From Cutaneotrichosporon cavernicola (lineage: Eukaryota > Basidiomycota > Tremellomycetes > Trichosporonales > Trichosporonaceae): DNA of 64,000 bases. The DNA is taken from the NCBI RefSeq assembly GCF_030864355.1, contig NC_083397.1, positions 2,790,001 through 2,854,000 of the forward strand, given 5' to 3'. The position numbers were made by a program, and so were the translations under genes. Within the stretch, counting starts at the first letter, position 1. Every line of letters begins with the position of its first letter. Positions 2-18,318 of the stretch are shown here, piece after piece. The notes under the pieces are model-generated. The model was not told the origin of the DNA and ran no database searches. It saw only the letters and a program-made list of their open reading frames with translations.

Positions 2-3000
2 GGCGGTTTCGTCCTCCTCGCCAAGACTCTTGCACCGATCTGGAACGCGCACATCCAGGATACGGTCTTCGGCATGCTCTTCGGTCCGACAGGAACGGCA
101 GGGGCAAGCCTCGCCTGCCCGCCTGTCATTGCGAGCGTGTTGGCCGCACTCGACGCTCTCCTCCACTCCGCGAGTGGTGGGAGTGGGGTTGCTGACATGG
201 CAAGCAGCGTCGGCAGCATCAGTAGCACGATCAGCGGGTTGTCCATCACCCCGATTCGACAGCATCCGGACGACGACTCGGATTCGGACTCGGGTACGGA
301 GATTGACGACGACGGCCGCCTCGAGAGCCTCCTCACCAAGCTCGCACAAGTGTACCGCCAGTCCTCGCCGCTGCGACGCGCTCTCACTGCGCGTCGCATC
401 GAGTCCATGCTGCCAGCCATGGTCGACTTTGTGACGATGACCGTGAGCTCGAGCTCTGCGGCGGTGGAAAGCCAGCGCGCCGCCGCGCTTCAGTGGCTCC
501 AGGCGCTGGTGGATTTAAGCAAGTCGCCCGCAACCATCATCACGCAGCTCAAGCTCCTCATCGAGCAGCTCAAGGCGTCGAGCTCGGCGGACACCGCGGC
601 GCGCACGCCGACATCTGTGGCCGGTTCCATCTCCCGCCCAGCGCCGCCAAGACGGTCCTCGTCCAACCTCTCCACATCCATGCGCTCCAATTCCAGCGTT
701 ACCAGTATCTCATCGCCCCTCCGCCGTGCACCCTCGGGTGAGGGCGGTGGACCTCTGGCGCGCCTCCGCGCCCGAAACCCAACCCGAATGCCCCTCCGTC
801 GCACGCTTACGGGCGAGAGCATCCTACAGGAGGAGCGGGACAAGAACGCTGCGTGGCGCATGATCATCTTGTCGACTGTAAGCCTATGCGACGTAACGGT
901 GAGCTGACAGCAGGACGCGCGGAAGCACGCGACAGAGACGCTCGAGCGTAAGGAGCACTGGCACCGTCTGAACCAGGTCGAGTGGCCTGGGCTGGTCGCC
1001 GCGCTGCGGGCGGAGAATGGCGTGTGGGCGGAGGACGACAGGCCTGCGACCTGGCGGCTGGATGGGAGTGAGGGCCCGTTGCGTATGCGAATTCGCCTTG
1101 AGCGCACGGATGCAGTCGACGCGCCTGGCAGACAAAAGATCCGTGCTAACCTCCGTGACGCCATTCCCGGTACAGACGAGCTCTCAAGTGCCGTCTCGCG
1201 CATAAACGCCGCGCCGTGGGAAGACCCGTTCAGTCTCGCGATGGGCGAGTCGATGGCGGAGGAGCAGCCCGCTGGTACGCCCACCAAGCCGACCGCACCG
1301 GCGGACCCGTCCCAGGCTGGCGACGACGAGAGCGACGACGACGCCTATCATGAGGTCGAGGACGAGTCCACCAACAAAATGCGCCTCGTGGCAAAGGCTT
1401 TGCAGGCTGGTGATGTCGTCGAGTCGGCGCACAACATTGTGCGGATTGTCGGCGTTGACGCGCTTCCTGGCCTGCTCATTCTCGGGCGCAAGAACCTGTA
1501 CCTCATCGATGGGCTTGTGCAGACACCAGAGGGACAGGTGATCGAGGCGGAGCACGCACCGCGCGATGTCCTCTCTATCCCGAGCGGGACGTTGGCTGAC
1601 TTCGATCCGAGCGACCAGAGATCCCACAGGTGGACATATTCCGACATCGTCGAGACGAACAAGCGCGCGTTCCTGTTCCGCGACGTCGCTCTCGAGCTCT
1701 ACTTTGCCGACAAGCAGAACTTCCTTGTCATCTTTCGCGACAAGCGGGAGCGGCAGACCGTTGTGCATAAGATGGGGATCAAGAGCGGCACAGCGCCGCG
1801 CGTGCTCAACTCTTTTGTTCTCGACACACTGAGTCGCGCGCTGGTGGACACGCGCGAGGTGCAGCTCGAGAGCATGACCCGCAAATGGCAGAGCCGCGAG
1901 ATCTCTAACTTTGCCTACCTCCAGTTGCTGAACCAACATGCGAACCGAACGCCCAACGACGTGACGCAGTACCCCGTTTTCCCGTGGGTGCTGGCCGACT
2001 ACACGTCGCAGATCCTCGACCTGTCGAAGAAGGCGAGCTACCGCGACCTGTCGCGGCCGATGGGTGCGCTTACTCCCGCCCGCAGGGAGGAGGCACTAGA
2101 GCGGTACCAGGTGATGGAGGGCGTGGGCGAGAAGCCATTCCACTACGGCACGCACTACTCGAGTTCGATGATTGTGTGCGGGTACATGATCCGCTTGAGT
2201 CCGTTCACCGAAATATTCCTCGCGTTACAGGGCGGTACGTTCGACCTCGCGGACCGCCTTTTCTCGTCGGTTCCGCGCGCATGGGACTCGGCCAGCGCGA
2301 CCAACCGTGGCGACGTGCGGGAGCTCATCCCCGAGTTCTTCTACGCCCCCTCCTTCCTGACCAACCTGAACCATCACGACTTTGGGCGCAAACAGGTATC
2401 GGGCGACGTGGTCAACGATGTCGCCTTGCCTCCGTGGGCGCTAAACGACCCGCTACTCTTCGTGCACATCAACCGCGAAACGCTCGAGAGCGACTACGTC
2501 TCGCGCCACCTCCCCGAATGGATCGACCTGACGTTCGGACACAAGCAGGGCGACGCGGCATCTTTCAACTGCTTCCATCCACTTAGCTACCGCGGCGCAG
2601 TCGACCTCGACAGAATGAAGGACGACGCCGAGCGCGCATCCAGCACTGCCATCATCCACAACTTTGGCCAGACGCCACTACAGATCTTCCGAACGCCGCA
2701 CCCACACCGTTTCCTCGGCGGTAGAACTACGCTGCCCATCGGCCAGCGGTTCGGCGTCGCTGAGCAGTGGCAGCTCCTCCTGCGCTCCGTGATGCCTATC
2801 ATGGACGTTGCGTCGCGCGTGCATCACATCCTCGAGAATGATCGGGGAGATGGCCGACCTCGGGTAGAGCAGAAACACCGTCTCGCCGTGCCGGGATATG
2901 CGGGGTTGAGTGTACAGTTTGGCTTCGCGGACCAGAGTATCCGGATCTACCATGCAGAGATGGGTCAGAGGGTGAGTCCAGCCGCTCCCTGCAGACATCA

Positions 3001-4341
3001 CTTCTTTCCTCACCCACATCCAACCAACCTACCCTCCCCACTGACTCCAGCTCGTGTACATCGTCGAGGGCATCGATGTCACTCATGCGGCCTTCGCAGC
3101 CCCAACCCTCCTCGTGACCGTGAGCTCGCTCGGCGTGCTCACAGCCTGGCGCCTGGCCGTGAAGGGCGGCGGTCTGCGGCGCGGAGACGCTGGCCTAACC
3201 CGCGAAGCAACGCTGCGGGGCGCGAACCGCACAGTCACCTCGCTGGCTGTGAGCACGGCCTGGTCATTTATCGTGACGGGTTGTGCGGACGGCACGGCGC
3301 TCGTCTGGGATTCGAACCGGCTGAGATACACTCGCGCTCTAAAGACGCCGCGCACCGATCCAATCGAGCATATCGGCATCAACGAGGCGAACGGCCACAT
3401 TTGTCTCGCCTCCGCCCGCTATCTCTACATGTTCAGCCTGAACGGGCACCCTATGGCCGCAACGAGCGCCGACGGTGGTCGCTTCCCCGAGATCCGGTTC
3501 GACGACGCGCCTCCCGAAGTCCGCACGTTTACAGGGGGCATCGCGTTCCTCCACCGTGAATTCCTTGCTTCTGGCGACTTGCTCGTCATTGGTGTGAATG
3601 GCACGCTTGTGCTGTACCGCTGCATTCCAGGGGTACGGAGATTCGAGGACCAGGACGTCGAGCCATGGCGTCTGGTTCGGCAGGGCGTCCTCTTCCGTTC
3701 TGACGAGCATGGACATGGGGACGTGACGGCGGTAATGTTTATTGGGTAAGTGTTGAGCGGCTCTTGGAGGACTAGTTGACACCAGCGAAACGCTCTACGC
3801 CGCGTTTGAGCCGACGCCACCTGGCCGCAAGCACGCGGTGTACCAGTGGTCTCTTCCTGACGCTGGCGGCTCTCTCGTCGCGCAACGCCGTGTGCCTGAT
3901 AGTACAACGGTGTGCATGTCCCCCAGCTGCGGACGACACTTTGGCCTGCTCGACCCGCGGCGATGGTGCACAGGCTGTGGAGGCGCGTTCTGCGGCGCGC
4001 ACGCACTGCACGTCGAGTTCTTCGAGAACCGGTACTGCGACGTCTGCCGCGGCCGGCTGGGTGAGGCGAGCGAACTCGGCCTCATGGGCCGGAGCCGGAT
4101 GGGAAGCCGCGCAGGCTCACTCGACCCGAGCAGAGTCCAGAGCGCGGCGGGGAGCCGGCGAACAAGTGCTACCGGACCGCGGCCGAGTGTCAGTGGTCCC
4201 ACTGGTGAGCAGAGGGGACGAGTAGTGAGTGATCGGCGGGGGTCAAGGGATCCGTCACGGGAGGGTCGCAGTACGTCGGGTTCGCAGTCGCGCGAGCGGT
4301 CGCGGTCACGGTCGCGGTCGAGGCTCGAGGTGACGGGGTAG
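2..4341 (+). CDS. BEACH-WD40-FYVE-like protein, 5' end outside window
   Basis: This is the 3' part of a large BEACH-family scaffold (BPH1/WDFY3/neurobeachin type), which acts in endosome or vacuole traffic or autophagy. The frame is already open at base 2. Exons read 2-877, 914-2971, 3051-3745 and 3786-4341 (at least 1394 residues), joined by introns ending in ctgacagcag, ctgactccag and gttgacaccag. The second exon holds a PH-like segment and then the BEACH domain: NFAYLQLLN near base 1910, YPVFPWVL near 1973, and the stretch with HYGTHYSSS and FFYAPSFLTN. WD40-type repeats follow from about 3051. The last exon has a divergent FYVE-like zinc cluster (CxxxxC, then PRRWCTGCG and FCGAHA, then CxxC). 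The tail is Ser/Arg-rich. BEACH-WD40-FYVE is the WDFY3/Alfy order, so that is the closer comparison. The family call is secure; orthology to BPH1 or WDFY3 is inference. Confidence 0.9.
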
Positions 4342-4963: not shown

Positions 4964-5937
4964 ATGTCCTCAGCCCCTCGTCCCCCTCCTAGGACCCCAT
5001 TCCCCACTAGTCTTCGACCCCGCCCTAATATCACCCAGACAAATGGGAGCGACTCCTCAGACTCAGAGTCTTCTACCTCTCTCCACGCTGCAGATACCAC
5101 ATCCTCCGGTCAACACACACCTCCGTTTTCTCCTTCTCTGAATATGCCTGCGCCACACCAGACTCCTCTCAACAGTCCCATTTATGAAATGGCCGACATG
5201 CAACTCAGTCCTCAATACCCGTCTTCATCCTCCGATCCCATGTCAAACCAACCTCCTCCGCTATTCCATCCACCTTCCCTCAATGCACCTTCCTCGAACA
5301 GAAGCCTAAGTCCTTCCCGACCTGTGACACCCGAACACAGGACTCAAGTCGTCTTACCGACCTTTTTTTCGATACCGACCGCACCTCACAGTCCTAACTG
5401 GTTCCACCACTCACCGTCGTCATCGCCCACGCACCATCGGCGGTCCATGTCGCCACGGAGGGATCACCTCGGCGCTCGGCCAGACAGGCGCCGCTCATCC
5501 ACTGATCGAACGCGCCCCACCCCTGTTTCCTTGGTTGATGAAGACGACAACCCCAGCATCAACACAGAATTGTCGCCCCTGTTGCCGCCCTAACTGCAGT
5601 AGTGCGTCACAACCGGCTGCTTCACGAACGGATCACTTTCCCGGGGGGTAACGCTTCAGGAAGCCCCGCGATTCCCAGTAACCTCGGCCGTCGCGGCACT
5701 CGACATGACCGCATTCTTATGATACACAATCTTCCCAATGGTGTAAGGGAGAGGGAGCTGGCTGAGTATCTTTCCGAAAAGGTTAACACTGCTGTAGTGA
5801 CTATTTGTGGAAGTGTCGCAACCATCGAGTTCATGAATGTGACCGCAGAGCAAGCGACGATATATCGTGAATCACACCAAAGCAGTCCTGACATCCAGTT
5901 ACTGGTCTTGAGATTGACGGCACACCGATGTCCATGA
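4964..5937 (+). CDS. Paralogue A: Pro/Ser-rich protein with RRM-like C-terminus
   Basis: I do not recognise this as a named gene. An open frame from ATG 4964 to 5593 encodes a Ser/Pro/Thr-rich, presumably disordered 209-residue segment. A second open stretch (about 5600-5937) carries the RRM-like part: beta1 DRILMIHNLP, helix RERELAEYL, beta2 AVVTICG, beta3 VATIEFM, and a closing strand IQLLVLRL. The same order, disordered Pro-rich region then RRM-like fold, recurs in six neighbouring genes. An acceptor-like ctaactgcag sits at about 5590-5600, but no clean GT donor in the right phase is visible. The junction is therefore unresolved, and the locus could be two exons or a broken gene. It is the only intact-looking member on the plus strand. 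Confidence 0.5.
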
Positions 5938-6269
5938 CATGGCTACTGTAACGACCTGAACCCCAACCGTGACAGCGCATCAGGAGAGAAGAACCGGCAG
6001 ACGAATGAAGAACAAGACGGAGCGATGCAACTGTCTTAGTGGACTTGCATGCGGAACTACAATATAGTGCTTTAGCTGGCATGCATTGCTCGAAATGTAT
6101 TAGGTAGCGCTTAGGTGGCAATGTATGTCACTTTGCTCGAGAGGTTACAGGCAGCACTGTTTTTGTGTCTCCCATACAGGCATCTTCACCTTCGCTCATC
6201 ACCCATCTTTCCCGAACAATTGATCCAGTATACGACCGCTTGCCTTCCGTCTCTCCTCTGCTTTTGCAA
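5938..6269. other. Intergenic, 332 bp
   Basis: I see no coding sequence or repeat. This is the spacer between paralogue A and remnant H. Confidence 0.4.
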
Positions 6270-6537
6270 ATGGCCGAGCAGCCCCTTATCGATCCCGCCG
6301 CATGGACAATCGCCGACACCGTGCTCCCGGACTCGAACCTCACGCCACCGTTCACATCTTTACCCTCAACCCACGCCGTCGGCCTCGGACGTTCATCCGA
6401 TTCTCACCTCTATCCCCTCCATCTCTCGCATCGAATCAAGCTCCCCATCTTTCGGCGAGCGTCTAAGTGACCGCTTCCGCCCCAGCGACCGGACGGCAGA
6501 ACGCACAGCAATAATTAGCCCAATCACCCAGCTATAA
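6270..6537 (+). pseudogene. Remnant H: truncated relative of the RRM-like family
   Basis: ATG 6270 opens a short Pro/Thr-rich segment (MAEQPLIDPAAW...). Part way along, the frame that continues the family-like composition changes to one ending at TAA 6535-6537 with AERTAIISPI just before the stop. That ending resembles the first RRM-like strand of paralogue B (DERTALIGPLP), after which nothing of the domain remains. I read it as a truncated, frame-disrupted copy. The similarity is short and could be coincidence. Confidence 0.35.
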
Positions 6538-7422
6538 TCGGCGAATTGGCTGCATACCCCCCCGTGCAAGATGGTAGCATTGACTGCCTCAGAGTGATGG
6601 GGTGAGTTGTGTGGGCCGACTTCCTAGGCACACGCAGCAAGGACGCGTGACATCTTTGGAGTCGGAGGAAAGGAACGATGACAGTAATGTACATGATACA
6701 TTGATCAATGGACGGTGGGTAGTGTAACGTGCTCGACGATACTTGGTACAGTGTGAACGGGGTTTGTGGCGCTGCAATGGCGCGATTGTAATTGAAATAT
6801 AGATGAGCCGGAGATGTCCTTGACGAGTTCAGACTCCCGAGCCGTGCGTTTGCACCAAAGTCCTACTGTAATTGGACAGAGATAACAACCTCCTAGATAC
6901 TCAGATTGCCGTCATGGGCCCAATATGCGATTGCGAAGCAGAGTATGAAACGTGGAAGGAATGCCGTGCCGAGCAACTCTCCTCCGCAGACTGAACATCG
7001 TCCATAACTCCCCGCGCGTTTCGTATCCAAGGGAACGCTATTCATGTTAGGTTTAAATAGCTGTTTAGAGGAACCCGCTTTCAGAGTTTGAGTGATTTGA
7101 CAATTGACCCTCTGGGCGATTTTGGTTGATTGATTGTACCCTCATCCTTCGACGAGCGTAGCCGCTGACCATCCATCCGGCCATTTCGCTGGCCTTCAGT
7201 GACGTATTAGGATAGTCACACTAGACCATTGGGATAAACTGAGCCGTTTCCAGTCACGGTTCGCCCAAGAGTACAGCCTGACACTGAACAGTCACTTGGT
7301 GCATCATTGCAGCCCACTTGTAAAGGCGATAAACTACAGTTAAGGGGGACAGGATAAGTCCGATGAGTGTCCATGTACAAAGATGAGAGAATAGAGTAGT
7401 ATTCCTGAACTAGCTGCCGAGG
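6538..7422. other. Gene-free spacer, 885 bp
   Basis: This stretch is more AT-rich than its surroundings. I find no supported coding sequence, repeat or RNA. It separates remnant H from the 3' end of paralogue B. Confidence 0.4.
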
Positions 7423-8415
7423 CTAGAAGTGGACACGATCATCCTCCAGCTCGGGCAGGACGACACTAATGGGCCAGCGGCTGTCGATCAGGACATCGTG
7501 AACTGGGGTCAGATCAACGTCGAACACCTAAACCAACGCTTGCGGCGGGCAATCTTCGCATTGGCGCGCTGGAACACGACCTTGGCGACAGTGTTCTTAA
7601 CCGAGAGGTGCTCAATCACCCCGACGTGGTGCAGGAGGAAGGAGGTGAGGTCGTCCCGACTGAGGGTCGAAGGGAGCGGGCCGATGAGAGCGGTGCGCTC
7701 GTCGCGCGAGAGGGTGGCGGGGCGGTAGCTGTCAGTGATCCGCTGCTCGAGAGGACGTCTGCGGTATGCGCGGGGAGACCAGGGCTTATAGTGCCAGTAC
7801 ATCGGACGGTCGTGGAAAAGGGGGCCGACGTGATGCGAACGACGGCCACGATCGTGGTGACCATATGCGTGTCTGTCAGGACGATGCGGCAGGCTAGGGT
7901 AGAATTGCGGGTTGGAAGTGGCCTGGGGAGGTGAGATCATTTGATGAATTATATGGTTGCCAATGCTGGGCGTGAGAGCCATGGCTGCGTGGACCGAGCC
8001 CGAGGAATCGGGGGTAGTGCCAGGCAGACCAAGTTGGCTCCACGGGGGATTGAACGACCGCCAGTTCTGCGACGTCCACCTGCCAGACTCTTGTAGGGTG
8101 GGCGTAATGAAGGAAGGAAGCTGAACATCCTCGAGCCCATTGGTCTCGAGGCTAGAGTTGGGCTGCAGAGGCGAGAGGAAGCGGGACGGAGCATACCAAG
8201 TACTGCGCGAAGCAAAGCTCACCTCACTCGTGTCTCCAGGCGAGTGGTACTTGGGGTCTTGATCGAGGGAGGGGCTTCTGCCCTCGGGGGTCAGCGTCTC
8301 GGGCGTCGGCGTCAGCGACTCAGGTGTCGGCGTCGGCGTCAAGCGTGCCTCCCAGGGGCTATGGTCAGTCACACATCAACACGGCGGCTCACTCGTCATC
8401 GTGGGAGTATTCCAT
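7423..8415 (-). CDS. Paralogue B: Pro/Ser-rich protein with RRM-like domain
   Basis: Three exons on the minus strand: 8415-8393 (MEYSHDD plus two bases), 8358-7538 and 7502-7423, giving 307 residues. The donor after the short first exon is gtgagc and the acceptor is ccatag. The last intron (gttggt to ctgaccccag) is 35 nt and its use extends the domain. The middle is Pro/Thr/Ser-rich with TPTPES/TPTPET repeats. The RRM-like part runs ERTALIGPLPSTLSRDDLTS (beta1-helix), VIEHLSVKN (beta2), VAKVVFQRA (beta3), a basic helix, and PISVVLPEL (beta4), and ends shortly after. Function is unknown. RNA or protein binding is inference from fold shape only; classical RNP1/RNP2 aromatics are not conserved. 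Confidence 0.65.
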
Positions 8416-9946
8416 TCTGAAGTAGTTTGTTGCTTGTTTGTTATGCAGGCAACTCAAGAGATGAAGAGGAGGGAAATATGGTGTGAGAGAGACCTGAGAG
8501 GTGAGAGGTGAATGATGAGGATGATGAAGTGGGTGGTTCAGAGGTCAAGCTAATATACATGTAAAGGAGGGGAAGGTACATGTATATGTATTGTAGATTT
8601 GGTATGATCATGACGAGCTGGGGAGCGAAGTGTGACTCACTCAAAGTTACCCGAGCAAATGTTCAACTTGACACTCTCACATACGCATCCTCGCACCAGA
8701 CGTGTGACCCGATCCTCGCCACTCATGTCATTCTCGTGTCCCTCGCTCACATACCCTCATACAGATAGTATCGGGATCTCCTCCGTCGCCGTGGCCCCTC
8801 GTTTACCAGAACGACGATAATCCACCGCCCAAAGTCCAGCACATTATCATGCACTGCCGTCAGTTCTAAAACAGTCTTAAGAGCTTAACTCACACAACTA
8901 CGGTGGGTGCTCAGCCTGTGAATGTGTGAACGCCCCCTCAGTGGCGCCATGGGACATCCGTATGACCCCAACTCAAGCTGTAAGGCGGAGCAGGGTGGTG
9001 GCAAGTTAGCCAGCGCTTACCCCCTGAAGGACCCCAGTGGGTGCCACGCGCGACAGGAGAAAAAAGGGGATGCAGTGTTAGGTAGGGGTCTCTAAGCCTC
9101 GGCTTGATGCGGGGGGATCGAAGTGGCGTGGGGACTTGGCTTGAGAGTCGGCTTGGGGCTAGGTTGTGAGAAGAAGAAGAAGAAGGCGGATACGGTAGCG
9201 CCCTAGGTTGCCCATGTCAATGACATCGCTGTCAAAGCGTGGGATGCAGACTCATCATCGGGTGACAAAATGGAGTGTGGCGACGAGACCGCCAAGACTA
9301 AGCTTGGGGCATATTCACGAGCAGTTGACTTTGATATCGATTGCAGATGCTGCTCTTTGAAACCAGGTGATACAGTATCAATTTTGTTACTAGCTGCAAA
9401 GGTGTCGACCTCCAACCTCATCAGTCGAGTAAGACAAGGAAGACAAGGAGAGGTATAGTAGACGCCATGAATGACAATAAACAGGTAGTGTTCAATCAAC
9501 AAGCACGGACGAACATATCTTCGCAACGACTTACTCGAGCGGGCAAAGGCTTGATATCGATTATTCTGAGTATCGCCCACTGTACAAGATTGATGGGGAT
9601 GAGTGGAATGAAGTTAATGAGCAAATGACTTGTTGAACACGCGATCAATAGCCAGATTCTGATCCATTGTCCACATGACGCATGACGACAATCCGTCAGG
9701 TACAGTTCTAGTGACGTGACTGACTTTTGCCACCCTACTTTGACAATGACGAGTATTTGACTCTGGTCAAGAAAACAATGCGTGGGTCAGTCTACCTAGC
9801 TGGGTATGTGTACTCGGGGGCTCGGGGGTCTCGGGGCTGGGGGGGTTACAAGAAAATAGGGACATAGTACTTTGTCACCTTTGTCACAGTGCAGTGGGCC
9901 CGTGCTCTATCCTCCTGTTTGTTGAGCTCACGCACATATTACCCCA
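8416..9946. other. Gene-poor spacer, 1.5 kb
   Basis: A TA-rich patch lies near 8540-8600, upstream of paralogue B, and a short AAG/GAA run lies near 9172-9186. The open stretch at 9203-9580 on the minus strand has no family resemblance and ordinary chance length. I support no gene here. Confidence 0.4.
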
Positions 9947-11085
9947 TTAAAACGCAGTTTCGCCGACGTTCTCGCACATAACGGCCACGGCGAGGGTCAG
10001 CTTCTTGGCTCGCGCGTAGTTGTGAACTATTGTCAGCTCCATTTGTCTCATCTTCTCACGTTGCGGCTTTGCGAGGCGGCCATGCTTCTCGGCAAGAACA
10101 GCACAAGCCAATCCGATATTGTCGTCGCATTCGAAGTCCATTTTCCCGAGCTTCCGGCGAAGAAACATAGCGATCTCAGATCCGGGGACCGACCCGGGGC
10201 GGTAACGGATGAACACCGTACGCTCACTTTCGCTAAGACTTGGGGTGAAACCCAGAACGGGTGTTCCTGGGAGAGGACCGGGAGGAGAGTTAATGGTACA
10301 ACGGCCTACGGCGGTGGGATACGGCTGGTAAGAGGGAGAGGATCCAAGCGGATTGCGGGCGCGGAGGGGAGTGAAGACATGAGGCAAGCGGGATTCACGA
10401 TAGCCTGGTGGAGGAGAGATGATGGGAACGGGGCGCGGAACTGGAGGCTTGGTAGGTGACCAGAAGGACAGGTTAGGTGGGGTGAAGATGGGCTCGGCGA
10501 AGGCCGGCTGATGATCAAGTTGAGCGACGGGAGCATAAAGCGGAGGCCCTGGAGGAGAAGCCATGTTGTGAGTCTCAATTGGGTATTGATGAGGAGACAC
10601 GATCAGCTCTGGGGAGGAAGGCTGAAGAAAGAGGAGTGGGGCGGCAGCGGGACACCTGGGAGAGGGGGAGGAGTGGACCCTGGTGAAGGGCGGCCGCCTC
10701 TTATTCCAAGGATTAGTGTCGGCCGTGGATGCAAAGAACGACTTTGGAGGCCTCCCAGAGAGGGTGCGCGATCTGTTGCGGCGGTGCATTGGGATAGTTG
10801 AGCGGTGAGGAAATGCAGCTGAGAGGAGTCGGGGGGGAGTGAGCGACAGCACATCGTTCTTCGTGGGATTGGAGTACTTCTTGGAGGTCGGGTACACGGG
10901 CTCGTTAGGAACAATGCTGTCGTCATCGGCATCGTCTGCCATCGCGTTGTCGATGTCGTTGTACAGACCATTGACCCCATCCTCGGGTTTGGAGGCGCTG
11001 GTATCAACATGGTGAAGCAATTTGAGAAGGAAGGTGACTTGACTCACTCGAACGACGTTGGATACTGCCCCGAGACGTCGCCCAT
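9947..11085 (-). CDS. Paralogue C: Pro-rich protein with RRM-like domain
   Basis: Two exons: 11085-11048 (12 codons plus GA, starting MGDVSGQYPTSF) and 10997-9947, 362 residues in all. The intron runs from gtgagtc to gttgataccag. The first intron interrupts a short acidic N-terminus after GA, in the same phase as in paralogue B, which supports common ancestry. After an acidic patch (MADDADDD) there are about 220 Pro/Ser-rich residues. The C-terminal domain follows: ERTVFIRYRPG (beta1), SEIAMFLRRKLG (helix), KMDFECDD (beta2), LACAVLAEKHG (beta3), a charged helix, and LTLAVAVM (beta4). Function is unknown. An internal ATG at 10942 would give a shorter form. Confidence 0.65.
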
Positions 11086-11897
11086 GATAAAGAGGGAATG
11101 CAGTCAGAGTATAAATGGGATAGAGGGCGCAAGACAGTGTTGGAAAGGCAAGAAGGTGATGTAGAGAAAGAAGTGACAATGAGTTAAAGAGTGAATTAGA
11201 AATGCGTAGACTCGGGATGAAGCAATATATTTTGGCCGAGTGATGTTGTCAATTGTCAAGGAAGAAGGCGGTGGCATTTGTGTTCTTCCAGGGCTCCCTT
11301 CCTCGCACCAAAATCCATGCTGCTCATAGATGTGTAACTCGTTCTGTATTCTATGGATACAGTAAAGACAGTCGAAAGAGTTGGTCTCAAGGTTGGCTGG
11401 GCCATTGCCACTCACACCACTTCGCTCCAACATACACTGTAGTCACAGCCGGTTCTGGCTGGGCGATGCAAGCGAAAGCACCTCGTTCACCAAAAGGACC
11501 TGGTCCTCAACCGGAGAGTTGACCTCCGTCTCATGAGCTAGGCCTGCCAACGGCGTGGGCGAAGGCGTTGGGATGAGGTGCTAAGAAAACCCATGGGGGC
11601 GGCTGAATAGGCTGAGACGACGGTTGACGGAGAGGCGGCAGGTCTTGAAGGGGGCTACGAGTTTGAGCTTGCTCAGGCTACTGTAGGCACGTGTACGAGA
11701 TTGCCCTGGTGAAGGCATGGGTTGCATGTACAGTAGTGCCGGAGCGAGCATTCCAACTAATGCCAGCTCCTCTGACGGCCTTGCAGTTCACCTCGATCAT
11801 TCGACGCCACGCGTACTGGTATCACCTTGATCAAGTAAACAGTTGAGCCTTCAGTAGTTAAACGCTCAAATGCCCTCCAGTTTCTGAAAACACACGC
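11086..11897. other. Intergenic, 812 bp
   Basis: This is the upstream region of paralogue C and the downstream region of D. I see no supported gene or repeat. Confidence 0.4.
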
Positions 11898-12460
11898 CTA
11901 CAGTACCAATGCATTCGACTGGCAGAGGGCGCCGGTGGGGCCGATACTGTTGTTCTCAGCCCTCAGTTCTTCCCACGTCAGATAAAAATAGTGAGGACTT
12001 ACGGTACACTGTAGCGCAAAGCCTCGTGTTCAAGCTGAGCAGAGAAGTGCACATCTGCCAGCCAGTCGATTACGCAGATTCTCTCCACCGGTCCGAGGCG
12101 GAATGCGAGGGATGCACGCAAGTCCGCCACCATGATGCCGTCGGGGACGGGGTAGAACAGGAACCTCCTGACGTTGCGAGTGTGCTGGAGGGGTGTCCCC
12201 GGACCGAGGCTGAAGCGCGTGGATAGGGGGTCCGGATGACTCGGGAATTGTTTAAGTGGGACGTTCGGGGTTGAGGGGCACTTGAGAGGGATGTCGCGGA
12301 AGGAATAGTCTACTGTACCTGCTCCCTCCCTAGGTGGCTTGGTGAGTTGGACGAGCCTAGAGATGAAATTTGCAGCTTCTGGGCTAGAAGCTGGGGTTAG
12401 CCTTGATATTGATTGGCTTACCTCGTCAAGCGAGAGGTCGAGTTCCATTGGCTGGGACAT
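11898..12460 (-). CDS. Paralogue D: short RRM-like family member
   Basis: Start MSQPMELDLSL at 12460; the last intron runs from gtaagt (12002) to acaacag (11947), and the stop is at 11898-11900. Read through, exon 1 (12460-12003) plus 11946-11898 gives 168 residues. A perfect-looking intron after codon 13 (gtaagcc to ctaaccccag) and a second donor/acceptor pair (gtacag to ctctcaag) also restore frame, so the N-terminal exon structure is ambiguous. The domain reads RRFLFYPVPDGI (beta1), ADLRASLAFRLG (helix), VERICVID (beta2), LADVHFSA (beta3), then HEALRYS. The disordered region is much shorter than in B, C and E. Its beta1 PVP motif matches E and G closely, so D, E and G form a subgroup. Confidence 0.55.
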
Positions 12461-12789
12461 AGCAAGATGTTGAGGAATGAAGGTAGCAACGAGGAGTCTG
12501 GTGAGTTAGATTATTTGTGAAGAGCGGCATTCGTGGCGCCGAAACTGCGCGCATCATTGCGGCTCTCTAGCCCTACCTCAGTCCGATGAATCGGCTTGTC
12601 ATTTCTTCTGCATTTTTCCATGTCACGGTAGCCTTTGTGCAGGCCGTGTAGGCTTCCCAAGCCGTGGACCCTCTGTGGGGGCCCGTCGGTCGTTATTTTT
12701 ATACTTCTACTAAATCTTTCGATGCCGACAGAAGCGTTAGGCATAGGCGCACCAACCCGACATGTATCACAGATGAACTGGTTACAAGA
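12461..12789. other. Intergenic, 329 bp
   Basis: This is the promoter side of paralogue D and the 3' side of E. Nothing else is evident. Confidence 0.4.
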
Positions 12790-13812
12790 TTACATGAGGC
12801 TGCTGCGAGGTTGTCGCGCTCGTTCCCGATCAAGACGATCGAGCTCCCCTCCCGCCCTCGCCTTGTCTGTTGTACGGCGGGTTAAAGTGTGACGAATCAC
12901 ATCGACCATCTGTTCCCGAGAGGCCGTGGATCGACTCGGCCAGTCATCTCGGGGGAATCTCTCCTCATCTGTCATAGGGTGCGGCGCTTCAAAACAGCGG
13001 TCGCCGTGCTTAGGAAACGCCTGGACAGGAAATAGTGGGAGGGGCCATGCGAAGAGGCGCACTGGTGTCAGCTTTGCCGGGATATATGCATTGTAGCTCA
13101 CCTCCATCGATCGCTGCGGAGCGGACTGGTGTCAACTGGGAATAGCTCTGATAGCTTACAGAACTGGAGCGCCCGGTTTCCTTGAGGTTTCTCGAACACG
13201 ACGCGGGCGCAACCTCCAGCAATATGTACGAACCCCACTGCTCCCAGGTGGCGAGTTAGCTCGTAACCGAGTGCAGCCTCGGTGCCGTTGGGGACCGGAC
13301 AGATGAGGTAGTGCCGAGCGCGGTAGGTTGGGTGATCAGGTAGGGCTGGGAGGTCGGTACTAAGGCGCGTGCCGAGGCCCGGTTGTGTGAAGGGAATGGA
13401 GGGGCGGGGTGGGAGGGTGATGTGTGGGGGAGGTAGGGTGATGTGTGGGGGAGGTAGGGTTCTACGGCCCCGAGGGAGGCGACGTCGATTCGAAGCCTGC
13501 CGTTGGGGTGGTGGAGAGCCGCGAGGAGGGGTGGATTCATACACTGGCAAAGGGCGATCGGGGGTTGAAAGGTGTCGCTTGACCCTAGTTACCGGAAAAT
13601 ATTGGGGAGACGGCGGCAGAGGCGGAGGGGGATAAGAGGGGGCAGGTATGGGAGGAGAGACGGGAGGGGCTGAAGGAGGAGACACAGGAGGGGCTGGAGG
13701 AGGAGAGGATTGGGGAGGGAGGAATGGGCTAACAAGAAAAGACACGGAGGAGAGATTGCTTGATGAGTCTGTTCGCAAGTCGGCCAACCCTTGTACACTC
13801 CTGGCGGTCCAT
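12790..13812 (-). CDS. Paralogue E: Pro-rich protein with RRM-like domain
   Basis: Four exons: 13812-13797, 13768-13160, 13125-13102 (a 24-nt exon) and 13061-12790, for 306 residues. The two 3' introns (gtaagc...gttgacaccag and gtgagc...ctgacaccag) are strong; the 28-nt first intron is less certain. About 130 residues of Pro-rich sequence include APPVSPP and LPPPHIT duplications. The domain then runs RHYLICPVPNGTEAALGYEL (beta1-helix), VGFVHIAG (beta2), CARVVFEKPQ (beta3), ALQFFRSAAIDG (helix), VRLFAWPL (beta4). The 24-nt exon encodes the core of the last helix-turn. A charged 80-residue tail follows. This is the most complete RRM-like copy in the cluster. Function is unknown. Confidence 0.65.
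13395..13461. repeat. 24-bp tandem duplication in paralogue E
   Basis: The block ggtagggtgatgtgtggggg and its partial flanks occur back to back within the Pro-rich coding exon, encoding LPPPHIT twice on the minus strand. It is recent enough to be identical at DNA level, indicating ongoing length change in the disordered region. Confidence 0.7.
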
Positions 13813-14398
13813 GCCGTGTCACCAGTGAGGGATAGCGACCCGATGAGTAAGGTGTCGAAGGTCTGTTGTCAGTTAAGAGCACTACGAACGCAGCTCAACC
13901 TCGGCTGGGTTGTCGGCAGCCCCAGAGGAAAGGCCCTGGAGAAAACGCTGGGTCAGATCACATTCAAAGGTTGGGTGACGTACCTCCAGGGCGTCGAAAT
14001 CTGTATCTGCCATGGGTGGATCACTCTCAAGAGGCATGTTGACAAGATGAGTTACTGGACGAAAAGAACATTAATGGGGTTCAGAGGGAAACATTTGCTG
14101 GGATATGTCGTCACCTTCCTCCCTCCCACTCATTGTGTCTCAACCTACGGCGTGTGTCAACTATCTCATCACCTCTCCTTCTACATGTCCTCGTATGTTA
14201 TGCGTAGCTGCATCAGTCGTGGTTCTCCGGATCTTCGTTGTACCGAAGCGATGGTTGTGGGGTTTTTCAGATCTCAGTGCACCGGCAGGGTGCCGAGCTG
14301 TGAGGACCAGAGGTTGCTGCGTGGACTGACGATCTCGGTTTCCTTGAGCGGCTTCGGTGACACCGGGTACTCTGGAATCTTCCCGAAACGCGCCTTAC
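13813..14398. other. Spacer, possibly with the last exon of paralogue F
   Basis: The minus strand downstream of a good donor at 14398 should contain a terminal exon of F, but I cannot identify it. A long plus-strand open stretch across 13648-14913 looks like a shadow of the Pro-rich minus-strand coding composition. Confidence 0.3.
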
Positions 14399-15207
14399 CT
14401 TCCAAGGTCATACGGACATTGCACAGACGTAGACGGCCTCTGGGGTCAGCAGAACCTGTGAGCACAACACTGACCGCCGTCGATGGCAATGATATCACTG
14501 CCGTTAGATCCTCACGAGCTGCAGTTAGGCCTGAAGAAATCCATGGTACGCCTCTCACGGCTCTGAGTGTGCTCACGCGCTATCCTGGCCCCGGCCTGCA
14601 GTGCCCCGGCGGGACCAACGTGTACTGTAAGCAGCGCCAAAAGGCTCAGGCCAAGACCTCTACGCACGGAACAGAACAAGAAATAGCGGCAACTTTGGGC
14701 TACTTGGGTCTCAATCGGCCGGAGGGAAATTTTCAACTGGACAATATAATGAGGCAGATGAGAGACTTGGTGGCAAAAGGTGGAACGGAAGGGGCGGGAG
14801 AGGATGAAGGGTTGTTTGAGAGAGCTAGTTGCGCTGTGTGGAGTAATGGAGGTGCGACAGAAGCTCCCGTGAGAGAGACGCAAGGCGGTTATGAGGGGGG
14901 GGGGGGGGTGTAGCCGCGGAGAGGTGGTGTGTTGTAGATATGGAGCGGCCTCGAACCCTCAACATAGGGTGGGGTTGCGCCACGACGTTCCTGCGTCGGT
15001 CAGGTGGTAGCCGCTTGTGGGTGTTGGGAGCAGTGGCTAGATCATCGGCATCGGAGGATGATTTGGCGACGATTCTGGTCAGGTCTAGTGTCGAAGGGAT
15101 GTCCCTAAGTCCAAGGAGCTCGATATCGATGAGCTGCTTGCGGCCAGCCAGGTATCGCTGCGTCCGCGGGAAAGGGGCCTATATACCTCCAGGAGGTCAA
15201 CGTTCAT
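14399..15207 (-). CDS. Paralogue F: RRM-like family member with interrupted frame
   Basis: The start MNVDLLE (15207-15187) is followed by an intron (gtatat to caagcag) and an exon from 15133 reading LIDIELLGLRDIPSTLDL. That frame crosses a run of 14 C (minus strand) and soon stops. The RRM-like part lies in a neighbouring frame: CRYFLFCSVRRGLGLS (beta1-helix) and VHVGPAGALQ, then MDFFRPN. A spliced exon at 14439-14399 (donor gtgagg at 14515, acceptor ctgaccccag) gives GRLRLCNV, the beta4 equivalent. The order and the DFF...LRL pattern match paralogue E. The frame break coincides with the homopolymer, so this may be an assembly error, a slippage allele or a pseudogene. The final exon is not found. 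Confidence 0.4.
14895..14908. repeat. G14/C14 homopolymer inside paralogue F
   Basis: Fourteen consecutive G on the plus strand lie between the N-terminal and RRM-like frames of paralogue F. A one-base difference in run length changes which frame continues. Confidence 0.9.
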
Positions 15208-15824
15208 TTCGAAGGGAATGCAACAAGGCGAAAATGTCTCAAACTTGGCAAGTAAGTGAATGGAGGAAGGCGACAGATACGCAGCACCTTTCCTGGTTGG
15301 ATTAGTCGATTTCAGGTCAGACAGTAATTAAGCTTAATATACGTACGGCCTACGTCGTCTTTCCGGCAGAGGAGATACGAGCGTATCTCAGCGGGAGGTG
15401 ACGTGCCGACCGGTGGATCGCCCTCGTCAGCATGGTTGTAGTTGACTCACCTCCGTTTCCCAATGGGTGGTTGCGCCAAGGGTAAAGTGTTATCCTAATG
15501 CGGCGGTGTACAAGTCGTGACTATGGGATCGCAGTCACTCTCAGTGTCACCGCGATGGGGGTTACACCAGATGAGTTATGGCGGTTGAAAGAAGAGAGCG
15601 GAGACAGCAAGTTAAGATCCCGTCGGGGGGTTGGTACGCCCCAGGTAATGAAGCGGATCACATCAATTGATACAAGTCGAAGTCGCCGCGACGTGCGCTA
15701 GCCTTTTCCGGAGATCTGGTAAGCTACGGCCGCGTGGGGCTCGATCCCGGGGATGACACATGGCTTGGCCCGCCACGGGATGTGCGAGACCATGAGAGAC
15801 TAGACGGGCGCGCGGCCACTTCGA
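15208..15824. other. Intergenic, 617 bp
   Basis: Upstream region of paralogue F and downstream region of G. A short palindromic stretch with repeated TTGCC/GGCAA surrounds 15240. No gene is supported. Confidence 0.35.
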
Positions 15825-16360
15825 CTAGCGGGTCATAGTCGTCTTGACGAGGGCCGCATAGTGCCGGACGTGGCGGGATGGCCATGGCGAGCAGCCGTGC
15901 TTCCGTTTGCGACCACATTTGGCAGGCTCGCCGCGGTCGATTGTCGTAGTCTCGACTGTCGTGAGCTCCCTTCACCAAGTGTCCCCAGCTCACAGAAACA
16001 CAGAGGGCCCGGTTGCGACTTGTCGAAGACTATGTCGGCGATTCCCCCGCCGATGCGCACGGTCGCGGGCCCGAGGTGCGCAAGTGAGGCTGATAATCTG
16101 GCTGGCGAGATGCTGTCGGGAACTGGCCAGACGATGAAGTGGTGCCGTGGTAGAGGTGCCGGGATTGGCTGAAGGCCAGTGTGGATGCGTCTGCCGAGGC
16201 CGAGGTTGGAAGAGGGGAAGGGACGGGAAGAGCAGGAGGGGGGGATGTGATCTGCGCACAGTTGTGTGGGGCGCTGCCGCTGGTGGCGGTTGACTACGCC
16301 TCTGTGGCTCCTCTTGCGTTGCACATTGTTGGTGTTTTGAGGGACGGCGGGTTGGTCCAC
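15825..16360 (-). CDS. Paralogue G: RRM-like family member, 5' end unresolved
   Basis: The open frame begins by 16360 without an in-frame ATG, so a short first exon is probably missed, as in B and C. A Pro/Ser/Arg-rich stretch is followed by the domain: RHHFIVWPVPDSISPARLSASL (beta1-helix, shown here in part), LGPATVRIGG (beta2), IADIVFDKSQ (beta3). An intron (gtgagc at 15993 to acgacag) then joins to TTTIDRG, the position occupied in E by the 24-nt exon. After that E has a gtgagc donor, while G has gcgagc and runs to a stop at 15825-15827. So either a GC donor is used or beta4 has been lost. It is closest to paralogues D and E. Confidence 0.5.
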
Positions 16361-16548
16361 GGGCTGCTCATGCTCGTGAGTGGGGCATCGGCTTATGGAA
16401 CGACAAGGGTTGTCGGTTGGTGGGGAGATGTGAGAAGGCTCAACTGTACCGCGAAGACGTGAGTGGATGGAGAAAGTGAAGAAACAAGGAAGACAGGTGA
16501 ATGATGAAATGGTTAGCCTAAAACAACATGCATACCGGAACCCTAATA

Positions 16549-18318
<1,770 letters not shown>

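What the first reader, a model, noticed from the sequence alone, without database searches (positions are those of the whole stretch)
4964..16360. Tandem family of disordered proteins with a highly diverged RRM-like domain
Seven loci (A, B, C, D, E, F, G) and one remnant (H) occupy about 11 kb. Each has a short acidic or polar first segment, a Pro/Ser-rich disordered region of variable length, and a C-terminal beta-alpha-beta-beta-alpha-beta pattern. The first strand is often (F/L/I)xxPVP or similar, and the third strand is (A/V)xxVF or similar. DNA-level similarity between copies is low. B and C share a first intron in the same phase after GA, and E and F share the DFF/QFF...LRL ending. This looks like an old but still turning-over lineage-specific expansion. 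A binding or regulatory role (RNA, protein or silencing) is inference from fold shape only.
Basis: partly seen in the sequence, partly recalled or inferred. Interest (0 to 1): 0.85.

Follow-up and report, generated by a model that had tools for sequence, protein, structure and literature searches.

The report
Tandem yeast proteins with eroded RNA-binding fold
A cave yeast carries a row of seven very different sibling genes, some of them apparently broken, whose proteins end in a small fold like a common RNA-binding module that has lost most of the usual RNA-gripping residues; what they do is not known.

Summary
The array is real. It lies in Cutaneotrichosporon cavernicola, about 170-185 kb from a contig end, between a BEACH gene and VPS4. 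Of seven copies, A, B, D, E and G are each recovered by a profile of the others (0 of 2000 shuffles as high); C has weaker support plus a shared intron; F is marginal and looks disrupted; remnant H matches B (0 of 5000). New here: a phase-1 intron splits the same alignment column in A, B, C, E and G, possibly D. The family profile resembles RRMs, but this leans on copies A and B; the first half of the fold is modelled confidently, the second is not, and no copy passes Pfam's cut-off. RNA-stacking aromatics are nearly gone (1, 0, 0 of 7 copies; 17, 16, 20 of 20 selected RRMs of this genome). Public relatives were found only in C. cavernicola and strain HIS471, by searches that also missed known members. 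Codon usage supports the coding frame in only 4 of 10 stretches. Best reading: fast-evolving, weakly constrained proteins with a non-canonical, perhaps protein-binding RRM on a disordered tether. Function is inferred, not shown.

The parts
4964..5571 (+). Copy A, first exon: Pro/Ser-rich segment (donor uncertain, GTCGCC at 5572)
   Evidence: open frame, P+S 38%; own frame not favoured by codon usage
5665..5866 (+). Copy A, RRM-like domain beta1 to alpha2
   Evidence: leave-one-out 18.6 bits, 0 of 2000 shuffles
5899..5937 (+). Copy A, last exon (end of alpha2 and beta4) after a 32-base phase-1 intron 5867-5898
   Evidence: with it Pfam RRM_1 aligns over 1-68 of 70 positions, 13.8 bits, below the 20.7 cut-off
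6457..6534 (+). Remnant H: B-like start of the domain, then a stop
   Evidence: 0 of 5000 shuffles as high against B
7423..8415 (-). Copy B, exons 8415-8393, 8358-7538, 7502-7423; 307 aa; domain at 7712-7539 and 7503-7426
   Evidence: model identical to public protein P0003, CcaverHIS002_0510400; 28.3 bits
9947..11085 (-). Copy C, exons 11085-11048, 10997-10060, 10026-9947; 351 aa; domain at 10237-9950
   Evidence: model identical to public protein P0002, CcaverHIS002_0510410; weak by sequence, intron shared
12010..12460 (-). Copy D; domain beta1 to alpha2 at 12187-12011; last exon uncertain (possibly from 11946)
   Evidence: leave-one-out 20.6 bits with the putative last exon, 0 of 2000; 6.9e-6 without it
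12790..14037 (-). Copy E, exons 14037-13984, 13947-13900, 13862-13160, 13125-13102 (24 bases), 13061-12790; 366 aa in my model; domain from 13331
   Evidence: 48.5 bits, 0 of 2000; public P0001 has the same domain splicing but skips the Pro-rich exon and runs on into D
14515..15207 (-). Copy F: possible first exon (ATG at 15207), domain piece about 14718-14530; later pieces in other frames, probably disrupted
   Evidence: 8.2 bits, 1 of 2000 shuffles; tblastn of P0001 30%, E 0.008 in the window; no single open model found
15825..16432 (-). Copy G: linker and domain 16432-15994, 24-base exon 15955-15932, beta4 frame after an intron with GC donor at 15931; first exon of the HIS471 counterpart not found
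   Evidence: window G left out: 4.9e-6; P0004 82% over its residues 27-182
908..3556 (+). Flank: BEACH-domain gene (context only)
   Evidence: PF02138, 1.8e-109
16552..18010 (-). Flank: VPS4-type AAA ATPase (context only)
   Evidence: PF09336 8.6e-25 and PF00004 in three exon frames

Best explanation
An ancestral gene with a long disordered Pro/Ser-rich segment and one C-terminal RRM-like domain was duplicated in tandem between BEACH and VPS4, and the copies have since diverged fast, some being lost (shown: the array, the shared domain, the shared intron; inferred: the history). The domain keeps the RRM order of at least its first half, has a very short beta2-beta3 turn, and has lost nearly all the aromatic residues with which RRMs stack on RNA (shown by sequence). 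The likeliest way of working is a protein-binding or otherwise non-canonical RRM on a flexible tether, acting as a weak adaptor in RNA or chromatin assemblies (inferred). Constraint on it seems low or changing (inferred).
Confidence: 0.4

Rival explanations
1. The domains still bind RNA, but through loops, helices or the basic disordered linker rather than RNP1/RNP2, as quasi-RRM or xRRM proteins do (these names recalled).
For: Domains of 6 of 7 copies are net positive, +1 to +4, A being -3; linkers of A, B and G hold Arg/His-rich stretches; closest sequence matches are RRMs of RNA-binding proteins.
Against: The two invariant domain positions, Pro and Leu, look structural (F not included); no conserved basic or aromatic surface residue was seen in all copies.
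Confidence: 0.22
2. The array is mostly decayed: duplicated genes under little or no selection, still partly open, with no present function.
For: H is truncated, F is split over frames, G's first exon was not found and it has a GC donor; own frame favoured by codon usage in only 4 of 10 stretches, low GC3 in A, E, F; G differs from HIS471 at 20 of 146 residues, near the at most 23 changes expected without constraint at under 7% divergence over 327 non-synonymous sites.
Against: B (307 aa) and C (351 aa) are open, spliced and on 4 contigs each; B's GC3 is 0.72; domain core retained in five copies.
Confidence: 0.22
3. A conflict-driven family (self/non-self recognition, meiotic drive or defence against a mobile element) whose fast change is due to positive selection.
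For: Tandem array 170-185 kb from a contig end, damaged copies, narrow distribution so far.
Against: Positive selection was not tested, as no DNA of relatives could be compared; no Pfam domain of another kind in P0001-P0004; G's divergence needs no positive selection.
Confidence: 0.08
4. Chance: unrelated Pro/Ser-rich ORFs in which a reader saw a pattern.
For: C and F are weak by sequence alone; ORFs up to 329 aa arise in shuffles, and a 425-aa opposite-strand frame exists here.
Against: 0 of 2000 shuffles for five copies; shared intron position and phase.
Confidence: 0.02

Closest known systems
RNA recognition motif, Pfam RRM_1 (PF00076); nearest solved sequences: RRM of Nrd1 'Negative regulator of differentiation 1' (2rt3) and RRM of Npl3
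   Same: Order beta-alpha-beta-beta, Pro turn after beta1, Leu-rich alpha1, 'IDG' before beta4 in A and E at the place of 'LNG'.
   Different: Below the Pfam cut-off; RNP aromatics lost in nearly all copies; much shorter beta2-beta3 turn than in the 20 RRMs compared.
Protein-binding RRMs, including U2AF homology motifs (UHM; features recalled)
   Same: RNP aromatics lost; E and the HIS471 counterpart of G have R-x-F ('RLF') before beta4.
   Different: R-x-F not seen in A, B, C, D, F, nor in G of this window ('RLL').
Occluded RRM (PF16842) and PHM7 cytosolic domain (PF14703)
   Same: Sub-threshold matches for copy A only (E 0.084 and 0.21).
   Different: 13.2 and 12.2 bits against cut-offs of 30 and 27; the other proteins scanned do not match.

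Membership tests
RRM_1 (PF00076) | Score above the curated Pfam cut-off (20.7 bits) | tested here: not met
   Best is copy A, 13.8 bits; no RRM hit for the others scanned. None of 102 own-genome PF00076 matches lies in the array.
RRM_1 (PF00076) | beta-alpha-beta-beta-alpha-beta fold | tested here: inconclusive
RRM_1 (PF00076) | Profile similarity to RRMs | tested here: met
   Family profile: hhalign 85.7%, shuffles at most 2.7% of 200. Singly only A and B exceed 1000 shuffles; 16% without A.
RRM_1 (PF00076) | RNP2 and RNP1 aromatics that stack on RNA | tested here: not met
   RNP2 position 2: 1 of 7 (C); RNP1 positions 3 and 5: 0 of 7 each, positions assigned by eye from the alignments; 17 of 20 (one gap), 16 of 20 and 20 of 20 in RRMs chosen from 102 matches, mostly the best.
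RRM_1 (PF00076) | RNA binding | not testable with these tools
   No binding data.
U2AF homology motif (UHM) | R-x-F in the alpha2-beta4 loop (recalled) | tested here: not met
   Seen in E only, of seven window copies, and in HIS471-G; last exons of D and F are uncertain.
U2AF homology motif (UHM) | Acidic helix alpha1 (recalled) | tested here: inconclusive
   By eye, alpha1 of A has four Glu; those of B, D, E and G are not markedly acidic.

The most novel reading that the evidence does not exclude
The array is a gene nursery in which an RRM has been freed from RNA and turned into a fast-changing recognition module, each strain keeping its own set of intact copies, possibly for self/non-self or genome-conflict functions in a yeast group whose chromosomes rearrange quickly.
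Probability: 0.1. Interest if true: 0.7.

Novelty: new variant of a known kind. Interest (0 to 1): 0.4.

Why it matters
It would be a clear case of an RRM drifting away from RNA binding inside one small tandem array, with intact, altered and broken copies side by side. The intron at one fixed place makes kinship checkable even where domains share only about 15-39% identity. It also warns that such genes are missed or fused by gene prediction: E and D are merged in one public record, and no public protein was found here for A or F.

Tried and rejected
Own-genome searches with E, B, P0004, A, C, D, P0003 and F found no credible copy outside the array. One weak match on contig 2 (E 0.16) lies in a 93-aa frame overlapped by a 474-aa ORF on the same strand and was set aside as chance; a profile scan of that place failed and was not repeated. 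These searches are insensitive: within the array E found only itself and G, and B, A, C, D and F found only themselves.

Protein searches are also insensitive: E's domain (12 candidates, E up to 1) returned only P0001 and none of P0002-P0004; the alignment search (only the 7997 candidates sharing most words, E up to 10) did not return P0001. F was in one of three searches, A in two. So absence from other species is a lower bound.

A shared N-terminal motif was considered and dropped. Single-sequence AlphaFold2 of P0004 was poor, mean pLDDT 40.9; I had meant to give an alignment and did so. Pfam matches of other kinds were all under cut-off.

Literature (7 searches): C. cavernicola, 6 papers listed; RRM expansion in basidiomycetes, 0; Trichosporonales gene families with tandem duplication, 0; rapidly evolving tandem RRM in fungi, 2, neither on topic by title; non-canonical RRM, 1; quasi-RRM/UHM, 0; degenerate RRM, 5. 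None of the titles describes this family; I claim nothing wider. Of PMC10568926 I saw abstract and sections 6 and 16; of PMC10033678 and PMC3169606 only passages.

Rows dropped: F was left out of A1, A6 and A8; C out of A1; P0001 out of A6 because it drew D away; a fragment row for E's beta4 after it aligned to beta1. The 20 RRMs were picked from 102 matches for length and score.

Full report
Where it is. The only named matches to the window's array proteins are records of Cutaneotrichosporon cavernicola and strain HIS471. The window is contig 5, 2,790,001-2,854,000, of an assembly of 20,208,035 bases in 8 contigs; contig 5 is 2,979,660 long, so the array lies about 170-185 kb from one end. 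Genomes of this species were published with RNA-seq-guided gene prediction (PMC10568926, abstract and sections 6 and 16); which strain this is was not determined. The array sits between a BEACH gene and VPS4.

Is it real. Six domain stretches were aligned and each was sought with a profile of the other five among six-frame ORFs of the window: 5 of 6 were recovered at E 2.5e-8 to 2.9e-4; C was not. With seven spliced domains, A, B, D, E and G beat all 2000 shuffles; C (5 of 2000) and F (1 of 2000) are weak. C alone against the rest in hhalign scores 19.1 (probability 7.4%) against at most 14.75 in 100 shuffles, and B+C matches D+E+G at 85.1%. Remnant H resembles B (0 of 5000). A scan of the window with the family profile found nothing below E 0.5 outside the array. 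Six ORFs of 200 aa or more exceed the shuffle maximum of 3, but one of the six is an opposite-strand frame.

Gene structure. My models of B and C are identical to public proteins P0003 and P0002. The public model P0001 (266 aa) has E's domain splicing but skips E's Pro-rich exon by an intron of roughly 545 bases and continues into D. The well-placed introns in my models are 32-50 bases; longer ones are the uncertain first introns of A (92 or 107) and F (112) and the putative one of D (63). E's region resembles the HIS471 counterpart of G across linker and domain (E 1.85e-9), so I prefer separate E and D genes. In A, B, C, E and G a phase-1 intron splits the codon at column 62 of the domain alignment, in helix alpha2; D allows the same. 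E and G share a second phase-1 intron that sets off a 24-base exon, in G with a GC donor. With A's last exon, Pfam RRM_1 aligns over 68 of 70 positions, under the cut-off. Codon usage learned from the flanking genes favours the own frame in 4 of 10 stretches tested (B, C, two of E) and not in A, D, F or G; this counts against strong, long coding constraint.

What it has lost. Aromatics at RNP2 position 2 and RNP1 positions 3 and 5 are present in 1, 0 and 0 of 7 copies, against 17, 16 and 20 of the 20 chosen RRMs. In TbRAP1 replacing the two conserved Phe by Leu removed RNA-induced shifts (PMC10033678, passages). So stacking on RNA in the usual way is unlikely; protein binding, as by the C-terminal RRM of Pub1p (PMC3169606), is the likelier use. 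This is inference.

How it evolves. Three protein searches gave four proteins: three C. cavernicola records and one of HIS471. They missed known members (one search gave only P0001; one search did not give P0001), and no fungal genome other than this one could be searched, so the true spread may be wider. G differs from its HIS471 counterpart at 20 of 146 residues, 9 of 54 in the domain. With the published identity above 93% and 327 non-synonymous sites, at most about 23 changes are expected at the genome-average rate without constraint; this is rough, as no HIS471 DNA was compared. In this window no counterpart of the first exon of HIS471-G was found, F has no single open model and H is truncated. 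This is a birth-and-death picture, with age unknown.

Verdict. It is a new variant of a known fold with a narrow known distribution. Its function is open; I give 0.40 to the non-canonical RRM adaptor reading as a whole and 0.22 each to other RNA binding and to decay.

Noticed in passing
12002-14037 (-): The public record CcaverHIS019_0510970 (P0001) fuses copies E and D into one 266-aa protein and leaves out E's Pro-rich exon; probably a gene-prediction error.
   Followed up: partly
10904-10934 and 15023-15053: C and F share a 31-base stretch at 71% identity that encodes a 'DADD...PN' segment after the first intron; possible further trace of common origin.
   Followed up: no
15900-15931 (-): The second domain intron of G begins with GC instead of GT, and a beta4 reading continues open behind it.
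   Followed up: partly
HIS471 protein P0004 (CspHIS471_0100790): By its locus tag the G counterpart is early on the first chromosome of HIS471, whereas here G is near the end of contig 5; the array may lie on a rearranged arm. Inferred from the tag only.
   Followed up: no
13636-14913 (+): A 425-aa open frame on the strand opposite to E and F; no family match sought for it.
   Followed up: no
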